From assembly GCF_017315945.1 (NCBI RefSeq), contig NZ_JAFLWI010000025.1, forward strand, positions 1 to 35,182: DNA of 35,182 nt. Reading direction: 5' to 3'. This stretch comes from Candidatus Enterococcus courvalinii. Its GTDB lineage: Bacteria; Bacillota; Bacilli; Lactobacillales; Enterococcaceae. Each line of letters opens with the position of its first letter. Position 1 is the first letter of the stretch. Below the pieces are notes generated by a model that saw nothing but the letters and a program-made list of their open reading frames with translations, had not been told where the DNA came from and did no database searches. The translations under genes were made by a program, and so were the position numbers. Below are positions 4,408 to 16,508 of this stretch, one piece after another.

Positions 4408-4821
4408 CTAATAGGTTTCTTCAATCATCGTCAACATTTTTTTGAATTGGCGACGTTTGAAGTACATCAAGATTGTGCCCAAAACCATATCATTCAACTT
4501 TTGTAATACACCATGCGAAGTCATTTGTTCCGTGTAATGGATCTCACACGAGGAATCATCAATTGGTTTGATTTGATAGTGAACCACAAAATCATTTTTA
4601 GTCGTTGATGTCCGAAATTTATAAGACTGGTTTTCAATGACTTCCTCGATTTTGATTCGAGCACGGCTAGATTTAGAAAATACTTTTACATATTCAAAGT
4701 TATTTAGCTGCTTACGTGTGATACTTTTCCCTGTTGCTTTACGTACATCAAAAAGAACAGAGTCCATAACTTTATCGTAAAAGAACGATGCCGGAATATT
4801 CATTTTTTTCGTAAGTTCCAT
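4408..4821 (-). CDS. DUF3284 domain-containing protein
   Basis: This 137-residue soluble protein matches the DUF3284 family, which is often found beside lactose/cellobiose-type PTS genes in enterococci and relatives. It starts MELTKKMNIPASFFYDKV and shows alternating beta-strand and helix character of the kind seen in START-like folds, but this is not proven. Its ATG overlaps the stop of the 59-aa gene by one base (TAATG), so translation is probably coupled. The function is unknown; the placement suggests an accessory role in sugar uptake or metabolism. Confidence 0.8.
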   Translation of the reverse strand: MELTKKMNIPASFFYDKVMDSVLFDVRKATGKSITRKQLNNFEYVKVFSKSSRARIKIEEVIENQSYKFRTSTTKNDFVVHYQIKPIDDSSCEIHYTEQMTSHGVLQKLNDMVLGTILMYFKRRQFKKMLTMIEETY

Positions 4822-5030: not shown

Positions 5031-5252
5031 TTATACTGCAGTTGCTTGGAAATATAAAACTGATCCCCAAGGTTGTGCTTTGATCAGCTCTTTCGCCTTT
5101 TTAGCGGCTGCTTCCGGATCACTTGCCGTTGTTTCAAACATTAGCTTGATTCCTTGTTTTTCTTTAAATTGGTAACTGATTCCATCTTCGTTGAATCCTT
5201 CTAAAAGTTCTTTGATAGCATCTTGCTGCATTGCACTTGCGATTGTAATCAT
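5031..5252 (-). CDS. Conserved hypothetical protein of 73 aa in the PTS locus
   Basis: This 73-residue soluble protein reads like one small alpha/beta domain: MITIASAMQQDAIKELLEGF, a strand around ISYQFKEKQGIKLMFET, a helix (DPEAAAKKAKELIKAQ) and a final strand (GSVLYFQATAV). AGGAGG lies 9 bases before the ATG. The gene follows the IIC gene but is separated by a hairpin plus T run that ends only about 10 bases before its ribosome site. It is probably expressed at a reduced level by readthrough. The family and function are not recognised. Confidence 0.75.
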   Translation of the reverse strand: MITIASAMQQDAIKELLEGFNEDGISYQFKEKQGIKLMFETTASDPEAAAKKAKELIKAQPWGSVLYFQATAV

Positions 5253-5328: not shown

Positions 5329-6789
5329 TTATAGTTGTTCCCCTGCATTAGGATCCATTTTGTTTGCTGCAATAACAAATGGCGCCCAGATCAAGAAGGT
5401 TACGATCATACATACTAAGGTTACGATTGGCGCACGCCAGTCAGCCCCTGTTGCTAAGAATGATAGTAAGAATGGCGGTACAACCCATGTTACTTGTTGT
5501 GATACCGGTGCGACCAGACCTAGGTAAGTTGCTACCCAACCAATTGCTGTCGCAACCACTGGTGCAATCAAGAAAGGAATGAACATGATTGCGTTCAATA
5601 CGATTGGTAAACCAAACATTACTGGTTCATTGATATTGAAAAGACCAGGTCCAATTGACAGTTTTGCAACTGTTAGATAATCCGCACGTTTTGAGAAGAT
5701 CAAGATAGCAATCAAGAGAACGATTGTCCCACCTGAACCACCGAACCAAGCGAACGCATCAAATGAACCACGAACCCACATGTAAGCTTTGCCGTCTTCA
5801 ATTGCATCTAAAACAGCTGGTGTCCCTGTTTTTCCGTTGTATCCTTTTTGGAAAATATCGATATTGATCAATTGTGCTTGTCCCCAGATACCTTCTAATA
5901 CTGGTGCCAATACGTTTGGACCATGAATCCCGAAGAACCAGAAAATTTGCACAAAGACTGTAACGATCAATACAGCGCCGATCCCTTGTGATAGACCAAG
6001 GAATGGTTCAGCAATGTATTTTTGAACCAAGTCAATAATCAATTGACCATCAGTGAAACGTCCGACAACATAGTTAATAATTGCAATTACATATAAAGCG
6101 ATTGTTGCTGGCAAAATAGCTGCGAAGGCTTTAGAAACTGCCGGCGGTACTGAATCAGGCATTTTGATCGTAATGTCAGCTAACATCAATTTACAGAAAA
6201 TAATAACAGAAATGGCACCCATGATCATAACAGTAAAGTAAGCATTTCCATTTAGGTGATTTAAATTCAACCATCCCCATAAACCAACAGATAATGTTCC
6301 ATCTGCTACAGTCGCACCAACACCACTGTTGTTGATTGCTTCTGCTACATTTGCTGGAACATCCACATTTAGTGCTGCTGATAAGGAAGGACCAAACGCG
6401 ATTCCTTGAATCAACGTTGCTAACCCTACGATACCACCTGCTAGGTCATTGACACCATAAGCACGTGCTAAGTTATAGCCCCAAGAAAAGGCAAAAATCA
6501 GACCTGCGATAGCTAGTGTTCCGTTCCAAACAAAACCGTTGATCCCAATAATAACATTCAATACTGCATAGAAACCTTTGTCTGCTGCTAAACTATCTGC
6601 ATAAGTACTAATAAATTGCTGTGGCAAATCACGAATGATTGCATTGATCATTACAGCAACAGACCCTGCCATCGTTGCAGGCATTGTACCGATAAAAGCG
6701 TCACGTAAAGCAACTAAGTGCTTCTGCGCGCCAATTTTAGCGGCAACCGGTAGGATGTGTTTCTCCATCCAAGCTGTTAATCCGTTCAT
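5329..6789 (-). CDS. PTS lactose/cellobiose-type transporter subunit IIC
   Basis: This 486-residue integral membrane protein belongs to the EIIC of the lactose/N,N'-diacetylchitobiose/cellobiose PTS family (CelB-like). It forms the sugar channel and uses phosphoryl groups relayed by IIA and IIB. The sequence begins MNGLTAWMEKHILPVAAKIG, typical for the family, then shows about ten hydrophobic segments. Family-typical stretches include FFGIHGPNVLAPVLE, SFDAFAWFGGSGGT and NINEPVMFGLPIVLN, the last of which is part of the sugar-binding region. A good AGGAGG ribosome site precedes the ATG. The 142-base gap to the IIA gene holds three tandem hairpins. The exact sugar (beta-glucoside, cellobiose or another) cannot be read from the sequence. 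Confidence 0.92.
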   Translation of the reverse strand: MNGLTAWMEKHILPVAAKIGAQKHLVALRDAFIGTMPATMAGSVAVMINAIIRDLPQQFISTYADSLAADKGFYAVLNVIIGINGFVWNGTLAIAGLIFAFSWGYNLARAYGVNDLAGGIVGLATLIQGIAFGPSLSAALNVDVPANVAEAINNSGVGATVADGTLSVGLWGWLNLNHLNGNAYFTVMIMGAISVIIFCKLMLADITIKMPDSVPPAVSKAFAAILPATIALYVIAIINYVVGRFTDGQLIIDLVQKYIAEPFLGLSQGIGAVLIVTVFVQIFWFFGIHGPNVLAPVLEGIWGQAQLINIDIFQKGYNGKTGTPAVLDAIEDGKAYMWVRGSFDAFAWFGGSGGTIVLLIAILIFSKRADYLTVAKLSIGPGLFNINEPVMFGLPIVLNAIMFIPFLIAPVVATAIGWVATYLGLVAPVSQQVTWVVPPFLLSFLATGADWRAPIVTLVCMIVTFLIWAPFVIAANKMDPNAGEQL

Positions 6790-6846
6790 TTTATTGTTCC
6801 TCCTATAAGTTTATTTATACAAAGAGTTGCCTCCCTATACCAAGTT

Positions 6847-6930
6847 AAAAAATCCGTTCAAAAATTTTTTTCTTCTTCCGTTCAAAAAAGAAGGTGTTGG
6901 CGTATAACTTCTCCCGTTCAAAAAAGAAGT
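6847..6930 (-). repeat. Three tandem RNA hairpins with a common UUGAAC loop
   Basis: On the minus strand three hairpins follow the IIA stop codon, at 6930-6907, 6893-6872 and 6871-6847. Each has the apex UU-UUGAAC-GG, in which two U-G pairs close a UUGAAC hexaloop. The lower stems differ but pair in each case: ACUUCU/AGAAGU, CUUCUU/AAGAAG and an A/U-rich stem AAAAAAU/AUUUUUU. A 16-base core is exactly repeated at 6878-6893 and 6914-6929. On the plus strand the U-G pairs would be C-A mismatches, so the structure belongs to the PTS mRNA. The function is unknown. Candidates are a protein or small-RNA binding array, or a stability element between IIA and IIC. Confidence 0.7.
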
Positions 6931-6931
6931 A

Positions 6932-7252
6932 TCACTCATTTCCTAAGCGACGATAAATATCAATAATTTCTTTTGCTAAGTCTGTAAATGCGATTGAAGT
7001 CATCAAGTGATCTTGGCTGTGAACCGTTAATAAAGTCACTTGTACATGATTTCCTTGTGCTTCTTGTGTTAGCATTTCTGTTTGTGAATGATGTGCTTGG
7101 ACTAATGATTCTTCAGCATCCGCGATCTTTTGATCTGCTAAGGTAAAATCACCTTTTTTCGCTGCCGCAATTGCTTCCATTGCATCACTTTTTGCATTAC
7201 CACCAAACATGATCAAACCCATGATTGCTTCTAAATTTTGTTGATCTTCCAC
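6932..7252 (-). CDS. PTS lactose/cellobiose-type subunit IIA
   Basis: This 106-residue protein is full length for the LacF/CelC/ChbC-type IIA family, a helical trimer that passes phosphate from HPr to IIB. The phosphorylated histidine is H78 in VHSQDHLM, with D81 as the conserved metal-binding aspartate. The N-terminus NLEAIMGLIMFGGNAKSDAM is family-typical. It lies 29 bases after the IIB gene on the same strand and belongs to one sigma-54 transcript. The ATG at 7252 has an acceptable ribosome site (GGAGGAAAA). Confidence 0.93.
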   Translation of the reverse strand: MEDQQNLEAIMGLIMFGGNAKSDAMEAIAAAKKGDFTLADQKIADAEESLVQAHHSQTEMLTQEAQGNHVQVTLLTVHSQDHLMTSIAFTDLAKEIIDIYRRLGNE

Positions 7253-7281: not shown

Positions 7282-7599
7282 TTATTTCATCAAACTTTCT
7301 GCTTGTTCAAGTACTTTTGCACCATTCATCATGCCGTAATCTTGCATGTTGATTACATCTAAAGGAATGCCTTTTGGTGCTAATTTTTGTTCAAATTGGG
7401 ATTTCATGAAGCGGACTTGCGGTCCTAATAAGAGTACGTCTACATTTTTTGCTTCCAAATTGTTGTCTGCATCTGAAGCTGAAACTGCAAAGATGTCTGC
7501 ATCGATTCCCTTTTCTTCAGCTGCTTTTTGCATTTTTGTTACAAGTAGGCTTGTGCTCATTCCAGCGGAACAAACTAACATGATCGTTTTTTTCACCAT
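7282..7599 (-). CDS. PTS lactose/cellobiose-type subunit IIB
   Basis: This 105-residue protein matches CelA/ChbB-type IIB, which accepts phosphate from IIA on Cys10 (MVKKTIMLVCSAGMSTSLLV) and transfers it to the incoming sugar. VLLLGPQVRFM is also typical. I chose ATG 7599 over the in-frame GTG at 7608, because AGAGGGAG is 8 bases upstream of the ATG and Cys10 then takes its usual position. It is the first gene of the PTS operon, about 30 bases downstream of the start expected from the -24/-12 promoter. Confidence 0.93.
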   Translation of the reverse strand: MVKKTIMLVCSAGMSTSLLVTKMQKAAEEKGIDADIFAVSASDADNNLEAKNVDVLLLGPQVRFMKSQFEQKLAPKGIPLDVINMQDYGMMNGAKVLEQAESLMK

Positions 7600-7638
7600 T
7601 TTCTCCACTCCCTCTAATTTGTTTTACACTTTATTATA

Positions 7639-7656
7639 ATGCAAGAAGCGTGCCAA
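7639..7656 (-). promoter_or_regulatory. Sigma-54 (-24/-12) promoter of the PTS operon
   Basis: The minus strand reads TTGGCACGCTTCTTGCAT, a match to the sigma-54 consensus TGGCAC-N5-TTGCA. The GG at 7654-7653 and the GC at 7642-7641 are separated by exactly 10 bases. Initiation would be near 7630, about 30 bases before the IIB ATG. The LevR-like activator with a GAYTGA loop encoded directly upstream is the expected partner. Confidence 0.93.
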
Positions 7657-7764: not shown

Positions 7765-10464
7765 TTATTCATTTTTGATTTTATTTTCCAAAAACATCTG
7801 TGTAAGATAAGCAATCTCATCTTCCGAGATTTTAATTTGATATTTTCTTTCTAATGGCATTAAATTCGTACGAACCATGTCCATCTCAAGTCGATATTTC
7901 TTGGCAAACTCAGAAAGCTGTTTAAAGACCCGACTTTCTTCGTTTTTGATAAGAGCATCAATCATGAATGCTAAATGAATCAAGATGCCTGCATCCACAC
8001 CTGGCTCCACGATGATTGAAATATCTGTTTGAACTTGTTGAACTACCTTTTGTAACGAATAAATCAGTTCATCTATTGCTGGAATGGATGACAACGAGTC
8101 TTTTAACGAATAGACAATCTTATCAATTGGGATTTCATCGTCAGCCATCCGCTTCAATGTGTTTAATTTCTCATCATTAAAAATATCGTATGCCGAAAAG
8201 AACGGGATATTTTGATAATCGACATCCACTGTCCCAGCAATCGCTTTGATCTCATATTCTTCTAAAAGAGCATCGATATGTTTTTTGAAAGATTCTCTTT
8301 CTAAAAACTGCATTTGGATCAACTCAACTTTTTGTTGATTGATAACTGGTGCAATCCGTTGATAAAGCTTCGCAGCTACGCCTTCCCCAGTAAAGCAAGT
8401 CACGATAACTGCTTTTTTACGTTGGTTATCCGCCACATCGCCCAACTTGAATTGGTCACGAACAATTGATTCAAAGGATAATTGGATATTTTGATAAATA
8501 TCTTCTAAACTTCTTCCGACGTTCGCCATTCGGATTGCTTCAATCACAATCATCGTACTTGTCATCGTGATTGCTTTTGTCCGAACACCGGTCTCTTCAT
8601 AAATCAAATTACTAAATGTGTTTAAGGAACCCATATCAGTTAATAACAGCAAACCATTGCTTAGTTGTGCTTGACGAGCTTTCACATAAGTTAAGACTTC
8701 TTCATACATCGTTTGGACTTCCATAGCAAGTGGCATGTTAAATGCTGCCCCGATTTTCGTTCCAAGCAGTTCTTGTGCCATTTCCAACATACTCGAAGCC
8801 GTTTGGCGCCCGTGCATCAACACAAGGACATCCACATTATTTTCTTTGACTCGCTCACTCTCACCTAAATTAATTGACAAAAACATGCTGATGAAGCCTA
8901 TTTCATCAAACGGAATCTCCACTTCACATTCATCTTCAATAATGGTAGACAAATCAATGGCGACTTGAAATTCTTTCTTAAAATGTTTGCGGATATTATT
9001 CAAGTCCGGATGAACGATCATGTGTCCATCACGTACCCGATCTAATGTACTTTGTAAATGTAAAGCAAAAGCAAATCGCGCTTTTTCATTATAAATCCGA
9101 TCCAATCGTTCTTCTGCCACATCATATAGTTGATTCGTCAACTGCCAAATGTCATCTGGCAACAAATCTTTAGGAATATTGCTTTGCGTTAACTCTTCGA
9201 CATAAGTTTCAAAGTACTCATCAACATCTTTTGAAATCAGTGCTTCTAAATCAATACTTTCCACACCAGTTTCAGCCAAACTAGCTACTTTTTCTTCAAT
9301 ATCATTATAAACTTGCATATTACGTTCAGGATCTTGTGACCAAACAACATCTGCCAATCCTGGCTCAAAGGTCAGGTATTGGCTTTTGCTTTCGATAAAA
9401 TGATCTAAGCGTTCTGGAAGTTCCTTGATTTTTAACAAGCCTTTTTGAACTTGCAACGAAAGTTCTTCTTTACGAATAATCAATTTTTTCTCGTTATGCG
9501 TGCGATAATGCAGAAATGATTTTGCACAAACCAATTTTAAATCACGTTTCACTTGCCCGATATTTCCTTCTGCATCATAGAGCATAAATGCTAAAATTGC
9601 TTCTCGCTCAATGTCGATTCGTTGATTCAATCGATTCGCCTCTTGTTTAATGAAAAGCGAAATGATTTCATACCGTTCATCCAATGAACGGGAAGCTAAG
9701 TTTGGCAATGTAATTGCCATTGGAATCCGACGATTAAACGTTGTCAAAAAACTTTCAGAAGACTCTGTTGTAGCTCCTATGATTTGTACAGCTGCTTCAT
9801 GAACTTGCGCACTTTCCCCTAATGGTCGATAGATTCCTTTGTCAATAAAAGTGAACAACATTTCTTGTCCTTCTGGTGGAAGACGATGAATTTCGTCAAG
9901 GAATAAAATTCCGCCATCTGCTTTTGCAATTAAACCTGGGCTATCTTCTGCAGCTCCTGTGTAGGCACCTTTTTTGATTCCAAAAATGTGTCCAAACAAT
10001 AATTGAGGATTCTGCGCGTAATCTGCACAGTTAAACGAAACAAATGGTGCATCGGGTGCCAAAGTTTCAGAATCCATTGCAAAATGATACATACATTCTG
10101 CAAACATCGATTTTCCTGTACCTGTTTCCCCGAAAATAATCGTATGTAATCCTCTTGGCGGATAGAGAATTGCTGCTTTTGCTTGTTGAATACTCACTTT
10201 TAGCGACTCATTTTCTCCTACTAATGTTTCAAAGGTCACTTGTGTTGATGAGTCGACATGGACTTCTTCTTTTGCTTCTTTGGACATAGAATAAACCACC
10301 GGACGACCAGCGGTTTTCATGATTTGTCGCTCTTTATATAGATCACTTAAATAACGGCTTGCATTACTTCGATCGATGTGAAGATGTTTGGCTACGTCAC
10401 TTGCCGTTAAGCCGTGTTGATTGATTGTTAATAAATGGATGATTTCTTTCTTGCGAGCATTCAT
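7765..10464 (-). CDS. LevR-family sigma-54-dependent activator with PRD and EII-like domains
   Basis: This 899-residue protein has the full LevR/ManR/CelR layout. It has an N-terminal winged-helix domain (1-60). The AAA+ domain carries Walker A GETGTGKS (112-119), the sigma-54-contacting loop GAYTGA (166-171, a variant of GAFTGA) and Walker B GGILFLDE (184-191). A first PRD lies near 440-550. A mannose-type EIIA-like domain carries VLVLMHGRQTASSM with the likely phospho-His. A GatB-like EIIB domain carries VTCFTGEG with Cys. A second C-terminal PRD contains IHLAFMIDALI. It should open the sigma-54 promoter at 7639-7656 when the PRDs report sugar flux. Enterococci are known to have several such PTS-linked activators; this one belongs with the lactose/cellobiose-type operon by position. 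Confidence 0.95.
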   Translation of the reverse strand: MNARKKEIIHLLTINQHGLTASDVAKHLHIDRSNASRYLSDLYKERQIMKTAGRPVVYSMSKEAKEEVHVDSSTQVTFETLVGENESLKVSIQQAKAAILYPPRGLHTIIFGETGTGKSMFAECMYHFAMDSETLAPDAPFVSFNCADYAQNPQLLFGHIFGIKKGAYTGAAEDSPGLIAKADGGILFLDEIHRLPPEGQEMLFTFIDKGIYRPLGESAQVHEAAVQIIGATTESSESFLTTFNRRIPMAITLPNLASRSLDERYEIISLFIKQEANRLNQRIDIEREAILAFMLYDAEGNIGQVKRDLKLVCAKSFLHYRTHNEKKLIIRKEELSLQVQKGLLKIKELPERLDHFIESKSQYLTFEPGLADVVWSQDPERNMQVYNDIEEKVASLAETGVESIDLEALISKDVDEYFETYVEELTQSNIPKDLLPDDIWQLTNQLYDVAEERLDRIYNEKARFAFALHLQSTLDRVRDGHMIVHPDLNNIRKHFKKEFQVAIDLSTIIEDECEVEIPFDEIGFISMFLSINLGESERVKENNVDVLVLMHGRQTASSMLEMAQELLGTKIGAAFNMPLAMEVQTMYEEVLTYVKARQAQLSNGLLLLTDMGSLNTFSNLIYEETGVRTKAITMTSTMIVIEAIRMANVGRSLEDIYQNIQLSFESIVRDQFKLGDVADNQRKKAVIVTCFTGEGVAAKLYQRIAPVINQQKVELIQMQFLERESFKKHIDALLEEYEIKAIAGTVDVDYQNIPFFSAYDIFNDEKLNTLKRMADDEIPIDKIVYSLKDSLSSIPAIDELIYSLQKVVQQVQTDISIIVEPGVDAGILIHLAFMIDALIKNEESRVFKQLSEFAKKYRLEMDMVRTNLMPLERKYQIKISEDEIAYLTQMFLENKIKNE

Positions 10465-14984: not shown

Positions 14985-16508
14985 ATGTCAAATGAAAAAA
15001 ATGTTTTATTTACGATTTTTGGCGGTACAGGCGATTTAGCGCAACGCAAGCTGTACCCTTCCTTATTCCGTCTTTATAAAAAGGGGAATTTAAATGAACA
15101 CTTTGCAGTGATTGGTACCGCACGTCGTCCTTGGTCAGATGAACACTACCGTGAAGTAGTCAAAGAAACCATCCAATCATTGAATCCAACGGCTAAAGAG
15201 GCAGAAGAATTTGCTGACCATTTCTACTATCAATCACATGACGTAAATGATTCTACTCATTACCAAACACTGAAAGAATTGGCAGACAAATTAGATGAGA
15301 AATATCAAATCAATGGGAATCGTGTGTACTATTTAGCAATGGCGCCACAATTTTTCGGAACGATCGTTACACATTTGAAATCAGAAAAAATTGTTACCGA
15401 AACTGGCTTCAATCGTTTGATTATTGAAAAACCATTTGGTGCAGATTATCAATCTGCTTTTGACTTGAATCAACAAATTCGGCAAGTTTTCCCAGAACAA
15501 GACATTTTCCGGATCGATCACTATCTCGGAAAAGAAATGATTCAAAATATTTCAGCCATTCGCTTTGCAAATAATATTTTTGAATCACAATGGAACAACC
15601 GCTACATTGACAATATTCAAATCACATTTGGTGAAAGCCTCGGTGTCGAAGATCGTGGTGGGTATTACGATCACAGTGGTGCATTAAAAGACATGGTACA
15701 AAACCATATTTTACAAGTTGTCGCTTTGTTAGCCATGGAACCACCTGTTGCTTTTTCTGAAAAAGAAATTCGGACAGAAAAAATCAAAGCTTTAAAAGCT
15801 GTTCGAATTTATAACGAAGACGAAGTTAAAGAAAATTTTGTTCGTGGACAATATGCAGCAGGAGAATTAGATGGACAAACTTTCAAGGCATATCGTGATG
15901 AAGATAAAGTAGATGAACATTCTGAAACAGAAACATTTGTTGCTGGTAAATTCACCATTGATAATTTCCGATGGTCGGGTGTTCCTTTTTATATCCGAAC
16001 TGGTAAACGTTTGACAGAAAAAGGAACCCGAATCAACGTGGTCTTCAAACAAGTCCCCGTCAATGTTTTTAAAACTTCTGTTGACGAAGCTTGCGAAGAA
16101 ACAAACCTTCCACCAAATGTTTTGACCATCTACATTCAACCAACTGAGGGTTTTTCTCTTTCACTTAATGGAAAAGAAGTTGGACAAGGTTTTGATACTG
16201 AACCAATCAAGCTGGCCTTTCGAAATAGCGCTGAAATGGTTGAAAATAGCCCTGAAGCTTACGAAAAATTACTTTTAGATTCCTTAAATGGTGATGGAAC
16301 AAACTTTTCACATTGGGAAGAAGTTGCTCAATCTTGGCATATCGTTGATGTGATCCGTAAAACGTGGGATCAGATCCAACCAGATTTTCCTAATTATAAT
16401 GCTGGTTCAATGGGACCTGATGAAGCATTCGAACTTCTAGAAAAAGATGGTTTTGAATGGATTTGGCAACCAGACCACTGGTACCGTGAACGTGGAAAAT
16501 TAAATTAA
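14985..16508 (+). CDS. zwf: Glucose-6-phosphate 1-dehydrogenase
   Basis: This 507-residue enzyme oxidises glucose 6-phosphate to 6-phosphogluconolactone and makes NADPH, the entry step of the oxidative pentose phosphate pathway. Clear signatures are the nucleotide-binding GGTGDLAQRKL (from 13), EKPFG (148-152) and the active-site signature RIDHYLGKE (176-184) with its catalytic histidine and substrate lysine. The ribosome site is AAGGAGGAC. It follows the DtxR-type regulator gene by 14 bases and ends at a strong terminator, so it forms a two-gene unit. Confidence 0.97.
   Translation: MSNEKNVLFTIFGGTGDLAQRKLYPSLFRLYKKGNLNEHFAVIGTARRPWSDEHYREVVKETIQSLNPTAKEAEEFADHFYYQSHDVNDSTHYQTLKELADKLDEKYQINGNRVYYLAMAPQFFGTIVTHLKSEKIVTETGFNRLIIEKPFGADYQSAFDLNQQIRQVFPEQDIFRIDHYLGKEMIQNISAIRFANNIFESQWNNRYIDNIQITFGESLGVEDRGGYYDHSGALKDMVQNHILQVVALLAMEPPVAFSEKEIRTEKIKALKAVRIYNEDEVKENFVRGQYAAGELDGQTFKAYRDEDKVDEHSETETFVAGKFTIDNFRWSGVPFYIRTGKRLTEKGTRINVVFKQVPVNVFKTSVDEACEETNLPPNVLTIYIQPTEGFSLSLNGKEVGQGFDTEPIKLAFRNSAEMVENSPEAYEKLLLDSLNGDGTNFSHWEEVAQSWHIVDVIRKTWDQIQPDFPNYNAGSMGPDEAFELLEKDGFEWIWQPDHWYRERGKLN

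What the first reader, a model, noticed from the sequence alone, without database searches (positions are those of the whole stretch)
6847..6930. Three tandem hairpins with an invariant UUGAAC loop and covarying stems inside the PTS mRNA
In the IIA-IIC intercistronic region, three consecutive hairpins (6930-6907, 6893-6872, 6871-6847 on the minus strand) all present UUGAAC closed by two U-G pairs. Their lower stems are different sequences that still pair, one being purely A/U. Conserved loop plus compensatory stems is the signature of a selected RNA element rather than a simple DNA repeat. The U-G pairs make it specific to the sense strand. The loop does not match CsrA (GGA in loop) or PRD antiterminator targets known to me. 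It may be a multivalent protein or small-RNA site setting the IIA/IIB to IIC ratio.
Basis: partly seen in the sequence, partly recalled or inferred. Interest (0 to 1): 0.72.

Follow-up and report, generated by a model that had tools for sequence, protein, structure and literature searches.

The report
sRNA docking hairpins before PTS gene
The three repeated RNA hairpins are most likely docking sites for a small RNA, for which we found no earlier report, that also covers the start signal of the next sugar-transporter gene; the two partners have changed in step across about fifty bacterial species.

Summary
Observation confirmed: three hairpins with loop UUGAAC closed by U-G pairs lie between PTS IIA and IIC. 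The motif recurs at that place in orthologous operons across Enterococcaceae, with different stems that still pair, and hardly anywhere else. Following the loop complement led to a partner: an intergenic locus after uvrA, unlinked to the operon, with a promoter-like sequence, 5' hairpin, two mostly open seeds and a terminator. Seed 1 is complementary to the IIC Shine-Dalgarno region, seed 2 to the hairpins. Of 60 genomes with both regions read, 48 have motif and sRNA, 8 neither; the 4 discordant ones are two broken operons, a contig end and a false hit. Seeds and targets covary: in 51 genomes (24 distinct sRNAs) cognate pairing beats all of 20,000 re-pairings at both sites. Best explanation: a trans-acting sRNA represses IIC translation, with tandem U-turn loops as docking and probably titration sites. 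It works like E. coli ChiX on chbBC, without sequence kinship found. Expression and effect on IIC are untested.

The parts
6907..6930 (-). Hairpin 1: loop UUGAAC, two U-G closing pairs; 15-nt perfect complement (UUCUUUUUUGAACGG, counted by eye) to the sRNA
   Evidence: duplex -23.0 kcal/mol
6872..6893 (-). Hairpin 2: same loop; 16-nt perfect complement to the sRNA
   Evidence: duplex -22.4 kcal/mol
6847..6870 (-). Hairpin 3: same loop, A/U-only lower stem; 14-nt complement to the sRNA (by eye)
   Evidence: duplex -17.6 kcal/mol
6817..6840 (-). Fourth hairpin between the docking hairpins and the IIC Shine-Dalgarno; no UUGAAC
   Evidence: fold; similar hairpins visible by eye in relatives
6799..6811 (-). 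AACUUAUAGGAGG: IIC Shine-Dalgarno region, complementary to sRNA seed 1 (13 pairs with one G-U; 11 perfect)
   Evidence: duplex -17.5 kcal/mol
5329..6789 (-). PTS IIC, lactose/cellobiose family; presumed repressed cistron
6932..7252 (-). PTS IIA, lactose/cellobiose family
7282..7608 (-). PTS IIB, lactose/cellobiose family
7640..7656 (-). TTGGCAC...TTGCA, sigma-54-type -24/-12 element upstream of IIB (by eye against the recalled consensus)
7765..10464 (-). LevR-type regulator: sigma-54 activator, PRD and EIIA-man domains
5031..5252 (-). 73-aa ORF after IIC, conserved with it, no Pfam family at cut-off

Best explanation
The gap between IIA and IIC is the target of a trans-encoded small RNA of about 90-115 nt whose gene lies directly after uvrA (own genome: G000:C12, about 15977-16084, outside the window). 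Shown by sequence: the locus has a promoter-like sequence, a 5' hairpin, two mostly single-stranded seeds and an intrinsic terminator; seed 1 is complementary to the sequence over the IIC Shine-Dalgarno and seed 2 to the UUGAAC hairpins; both complementarities covary between unlinked loci. Inferred: the sRNA first meets an exposed U-turn (YUNR, here UUGA) loop, opens the weak U-G closing pairs and zips on (12-19 nt perfect in 44 of 51 genomes); it or a second copy pairs over the Shine-Dalgarno and blocks IIC translation, while IIB and IIA can still be made. In all but one species read (G097) the seed order would let one sRNA bridge a hairpin and the Shine-Dalgarno. Two or three docking sites per mRNA should soak up sRNA, so that strong sigma-54/LevR induction outruns the repressor (a threshold). 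That last step is the least certain.
For: (1) In the own genome CTATA-N4-14-CCGTTCA occurs at two places only: the sRNA locus and the antisense of the target gap. (2) The seeds are invariant in 14 of the 15 genomes of the genus (37 of 37 columns; G002, with one extra A, left out), the upstream spacer is not (15 of 53). (3) Co-occurrence in 60 genomes: 48 both, 8 neither, 3 sRNA only (one a false hit), 1 target only (contig end). (4) Covariation: G108 CCUAUAAGUAA with UUACUUAUAGG; G102 CCUAUAAAUAUU with AAUAUUUAUAGG; G034 CCUAUAGAAA with UUUCUAUAGG; G097 CCGUUCAU with loop AUGAACGG and CCUAUAAAAAA with UUUUUUAUAGG. Cognate against re-paired: hairpin run 14.58 vs 11.68 nt, Shine-Dalgarno run 9.88 vs 7.88 nt, 0 of 20,000 permutations each (first version, Shine-Dalgarno only). 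(5) G152 and G288, in another family of the order, have both the hairpin and an sRNA right after an ORF ending like UvrA. (6) In 7 sRNAs folded, mean unpaired probability is 0.58-0.99 in the seeds, 0.31-0.41 overall. (7) The loop starts UUGA, the YUNR U-turn described for fast RNA-RNA pairing (PMC4485353, passages).
Against: No expression data; no listed candidate in PMC5593968 Table 1 (section read) could be matched to it. Permutations and Fisher test ignore the tree. G015 has only a 5-nt perfect Shine-Dalgarno run (G-U pairs extend it); 4 of 51 genomes have only 7-9 nt at the hairpin. In G000 and G033 the first bases of seed 1 are paired in the fold. Seed order is reversed in G097. Enterococci seem to lack Hfq, CsrA and ProQ homologues (PMC7724050, passage), so any helper is unknown. 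The promoter is not listed by the consensus scan.
Confidence: 0.88

Rival explanations
1. The gap is mainly a sponge (trap) that removes the sRNA to free other, still unknown targets; repression of IIC is secondary.
For: Two or three docking sites besides the Shine-Dalgarno site in 38 of 71 regions. E. durans keeps the sRNA after losing the gap. ChiX has this arrangement in E. coli (PMC4098024, passages).
Against: No second conserved target seen: in ten congeneric genomes the 11-mer ACTTATAGGAG is at the IIC site in nine (G012 has a variant) and at six other places, which I did not examine; no other UUGAAC hairpin of this kind. Shorter pairings were not searched.
Confidence: 0.3
2. The hairpins bind a protein that recognises the UUGAAC loop.
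For: An invariant loop on varying stems is also how a protein site looks.
Against: The element is confined to one operon per genome. It is missing where the sRNA is missing. The loop of G097 changes together with the sRNA. Letters beside the loop also follow the sRNA.
Confidence: 0.05
3. The hairpins only protect the upstream IIB-IIA mRNA or mark a processing site, setting stoichiometry without a trans RNA.
For: In the species read by eye the first one starts a few to about 40 nt after the IIA stop codon.
Against: Does not explain the invariant loop, the matching locus after uvrA or the covariation with it. The two effects could coexist.
Confidence: 0.06

Closest known systems
ChiX (MicM/RybC) sRNA and the chbBC intercistronic site of E. 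coli and Salmonella
   Same: A trans sRNA pairs with the mRNA of a PTS operon of this broad family, which acts as decoy (PMC4098024, passages); that the site lies in the gap before the C gene is recalled.
   Different: No sequence kinship found (no Rfam match at cut-off for 7 sRNA loci), no Hfq reported in the host, up to three docking hairpins plus a Shine-Dalgarno site, no chiP-like second target known.
Antisense RNA systems with YUNR U-turn recognition loops
   Same: A hairpin loop with a U-turn motif is met by a single-stranded tail or loop of the other RNA (PMC4485353, passages).
   Different: Those I know are mostly cis-encoded plasmid or toxin systems (recalled); here the sRNA is unlinked and the mRNA carries up to three equal loops.
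ANTAR (EutV) dual-hairpin targets in E. faecalis
   Same: Tandem hairpins with six-base loops in an enterococcal transcript (paper PMC3369931 seen in a search listing only; details recalled).
   Different: Recalled A1/G4 loop rule not met by UUGAAC, and the partner found is an RNA.

Membership tests
trans-encoded base-pairing sRNA with its target | sRNA gene unlinked to the target | tested here: met
   uvrA and IIC far apart where both are on one long contig, e.g. G011 1.588 and 0.836 Mb, G007 1.030 and 1.819 Mb
trans-encoded base-pairing sRNA with its target | own promoter and intrinsic terminator | tested here: inconclusive
   Terminator found in L003 (1 against 0.1 in shuffles). A -35/-10 pair was picked by script in 44 of 51 loci, some with poor -35; one search did not list it
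trans-encoded base-pairing sRNA with its target | seed complementary to the ribosome binding site, conserved by covariation | tested here: met
   0 of 20,000 permutations
trans-encoded base-pairing sRNA with its target | expressed, and changes target expression | not testable with these tools
   needs RNA and reporter work
ChiX-chbBC | target in the gap before the C component of a PTS operon of this family (recalled) | tested here: met
ChiX-chbBC | homologous sRNA sequence | tested here: not met
   No Rfam family at gathering score in 7 sRNA loci; permissive scan of L003 gave only matches far below cut-offs
ChiX-chbBC | second mRNA target freed by the trap | tested here: inconclusive
   No conserved second site recognised for the 11-mer or the hairpin; shorter sites not searched
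ChiX-chbBC | Hfq dependence and trap-induced sRNA decay | not testable with these tools
   PMC7724050 says enterococci seem to lack Hfq, CsrA and ProQ homologues (passage)
YUNR U-turn recognition loop | Y-U-N-R in the recognition loop | tested here: met
   UUGA in 31 of 31 rows of A1, rows being chosen to hold UUGAAC; definition from PMC4485353. The turn itself is untested
ANTAR dual hairpin | hexaloop with A at 1 and G at 4 (recalled) | tested here: not met
   loop is UUGAAC
CsrA site | GGA in the hairpin loop (recalled) | tested here: not met
   loop is UUGAAC

The most novel reading that the evidence does not exclude
The tandem U-turn hairpins are a built-in titration device: one IIC mRNA carries two or three equal sRNA-docking loops upstream of the real repression site, so the operon counts its own transcripts and releases IIC synthesis only above a threshold. 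This would be an Hfq-free, independently evolved counterpart of the ChiX trap at the same point of a PTS operon, kept by mRNA-sRNA co-evolution across two families of the order, perhaps even tied to N-acetylglucosamine control through the ATTGGTATAGA stretch that the sRNA locus shares with the region before a NagE-like gene.
Probability: 0.45. Interest if true: 0.82.

Novelty: new variant of a known kind. Interest (0 to 1): 0.7.

Why it matters
Few sRNA-target pairs of Gram-positive bacteria have evolutionary proof of pairing (my judgement). Here about fifty natural sRNA/target versions, with compensatory changes in two unlinked loci, amount to a ready-made mutational test. The case shows how an sRNA can be found from the target side alone, gives an apparently Hfq-free model for sRNA action, and looks like convergence with ChiX on a PTS operon. 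It also gives a concrete way to ask what multiple docking sites on one mRNA are for.

Tried and rejected
A regulon of UUGAAC hairpins: every R1 match listed at E < 0.01 in 105 family genomes is in the IIA-IIC gap. Of 11 genomes outside the family with such a match, one (G152) is in the gap; of the other ten, nine lie in or antisense to unrelated open frames and one (L168) between ORFs. Of 20 weaker hits fetched, 13 share one context antisense to ileS coding without a stem (identity read from L167), and one (L146) is the sRNA locus of G102 read backwards; the other six were not pursued.

Protein partner encoded in the operon (73-aa ORF): it goes with IIC also where hairpins are missing. Terminator role: no U-run after the last docking hairpin in genus g9 (by eye).

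dre/NagR operator in the sRNA (ATTGGTATAGA recalled a GntR-family site): I first thought it refuted. On re-checking, of four sites in the own genome the two outside open frames are the sRNA locus and one 225 nt before a NagE-like PTS gene (552.6 bits against a cut-off of 553.2, fragment). In the other four genomes no NagE was recognised beside a site. Left open, not rejected.

Same element on plasmids: no match. Rfam: no family at cut-off for gap or sRNA (weak matches only in 32, 70).

Was the sRNA already listed? PMC5593968: section with Table 1 read whole, other passages. Placed through tmRNA and sRNA_2410 in G007 no candidate fits (Rfam scan of 7 of the 20 pieces), but the two landmarks show that synteny is broken, and that G007 is E. 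faecium is a guess. Supplements of PMC7724050 (128 E. faecium predictions) could not be opened, so an anonymous prediction there is not excluded. PMC7724050, PMC10117718 and PMC12870237 (passages) have no 'uvrA' in the main text. Of ten paper searches, two were about ChiX and YUNR; judged from the listings, none of the others showed this pair.

Full report
WHAT IS IN THE WINDOW. The minus strand carries a LevR-type regulator (sigma-54 activator, PRD and EIIA-man domains), a sigma-54-type promoter sequence (by eye), PTS IIB, IIA, a 142-bp gap, IIC (lactose/cellobiose family) and a 73-aa ORF.

THE HAIRPIN IS CONSERVED. I looked at the region upstream of 71 IIC homologues, paralogues included. 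TTGAAC[AG]G occurs twice in 35, three times in 3, once in 11 and not in 22. Stems differ widely, e.g. GUUAAAGU/ACUUUAAC, CUUC/GAAG, GUGGG/CCCAC, and still pair. Counts on 31 selected hairpins: 89.9% of cells paired against 64.3% shuffled, 65 double-sided cells against 24.0; two of the five measures do not discriminate, and the selection favours pairing (observation check). U-G next to the loop never varies in the 31; the next pair is U-G or C-G. Seven paralogous IIA-IIC gaps of the same genus (L009-L012, L015-L017) have no such hairpin.

IT IS NEARLY UNIQUE TO THIS GAP. A covariance model (R1) finds, at E < 0.01, only this gap in 105 Enterococcaceae genomes. In 395 genomes of the order it finds one more such gap, in another family (G152), and ten matches elsewhere. 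G288, of the same genus as G152, has the hairpin with one mismatch. In the own genome 28 of 29 other TTTGAACGG sites lie in an open frame of at least 80 codons, sense or antisense; the one that does not is L003.

THE PARTNER. L003 lies after uvrA. On the strand of uvrA it reads CUUCCUAUAAGUUCAAUCCGUUCAAAAAAGAAUUG followed by a terminator. CUUCCUAUAAGUU pairs with AACUUAUAGGAGG, the sequence over the IIC Shine-Dalgarno (13 pairs, one G-U). UCCGUUCAAAAAAGAA pairs with the hairpins (16, 15 and 14 nt). Duplex energies are -17.5 to -23.0 kcal/mol. A script picked a promoter such as TTGTTT-N17-TAAAAT in 44 of 51 loci; 38 of these give a product of 91-115 nt and 6 give 137-162 nt, where another -10 or terminator was taken. 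Seven folded sRNAs show a 5' structure, mostly open seeds and a terminator. In 14 of 15 genomes of the genus the seed block is invariant in 37 of 37 columns, the terminator in 33 of 36, the 5' part in 25 of 32, the promoter block in 17 of 41, the upstream spacer in 15 of 53, the downstream spacer in 19 of 38 (G002 left out).

CO-OCCURRENCE. uvrA was found in 105 of 105 family genomes; I read the downstream region in 64, 60 of which also have a target region. Motif and sRNA: 48. Neither: 8. Target only: 1 (G109, contig ends 139 nt after uvrA). Fisher p 5.5e-7 on the raw table, not corrected for relatedness. The sRNA criterion was only CCGTTC[AG] within about 430 nt; seed 1 was then seen by eye in the printed rows.

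COVARIATION BETWEEN UNLINKED LOCI. Genus g1: AAGUU with AACUU; g9: CCUUCUAUAAAUAAU with AUUAUUUAUAGGAGG. Inside g9, G108 has AAGUAA with UUACUU, and G102 AAAUAUU with AAUAUUU. In g7, G034 has AUAGAAA with UUUCUAU, and G097 AUAAAAA with UUUUUAU plus CCGUUCAU with AUGAACGG. In g6 the Shine-Dalgarno match extends to 14 nt in G019 and G086, 9 nt in G033 and G089. In G152, AAUUCCGUUCAA matches UUGAACGGAAUU. Test on 51 genomes, 24 distinct sRNAs: hairpin run 14.58 cognate against 11.68 re-paired, Shine-Dalgarno run 9.88 against 7.88, energies -21.71 against -18.80 and -17.37 against -13.73; 0 of 20,000 permutations reach the observed mean for any of the four. Before this test 14 of 63 target genomes were dropped: 10 without sRNA (G109's contig end and G016's false hit among them), 3 without a fetched uvrA region, 1 with sRNA but no motif; G152 and G288 were added.

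HOW IT PROBABLY WORKS. [quoted passage not shown] The U-G closing pairs should open easily. The sRNA order 5'-anti-SD, anti-loop-3' fits antiparallel binding to a hairpin and the Shine-Dalgarno at once, except in G097. Blocking the Shine-Dalgarno should lower IIC alone; extra hairpins should titrate the sRNA. Pairing is supported by covariation; expression, repression and titration are inferred.

WHAT IS KNOWN. ChiX of E. coli pairs with the chb operon mRNA, which acts as decoy (PMC4098024, passages). The arrangement is alike; no Rfam model relates the RNAs. Ten searches of an open-access library showed no report of this pair in their listings; an anonymous entry in unread supplements remains possible.

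OPEN POINTS. Eight genomes of genus g15 (relatives of E. dispar and E. asini) lack the motif; the uvrA region was read in six and has no sRNA. Three of the eight have another hairpin with loop UUGUUGGU in the same gap (by eye). What controls the sRNA is unknown; the shared ATTGGTATAGA before a NagE-like gene is a lead only. The sugar is unknown: equivalog models score below their cut-offs.

Noticed in passing
window 5031-5252 (-): 73-aa ORF after IIC, matched in 64 of 105 family genomes, nearly the same ones that hold this IIC (65), with no Pfam or NCBIfam family at cut-off.
   Followed up: partly
L076, L083, L085 (gap before IIC): Three genus g15 genomes without UUGAAC have a different hairpin with loop UUGUUGGU and varying stems at the same place (by eye); possibly another trans partner.
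   Followed up: no
   Followed up: partly
L173 / G023:C1 1705405-1707030: Operon remnant: IIB, IIA and hairpin present, IIC appears truncated and runs into a DUF3284-like protein (by eye).
   Followed up: no
window 4408-4821 (-): DUF3284 protein (Pfam PF11687) downstream of the PTS operon.
   Followed up: no
window 6795-6825 (-): UAUAA and UUAUA before the IIC Shine-Dalgarno could pair and compete with hairpin 4; seen by eye in several relatives.
   Followed up: no
L141, L142 (G109 contig ends): The same sequence with TTTTTTGAACGG lies at the ends of two contigs of one genome, probably a repeated element.
   Followed up: no
L462 (G000:C8:62657, -): ATTGGTATAGA, also present in the sRNA locus, lies 225 nt before a NagE-like PTS gene.
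   Followed up: partly
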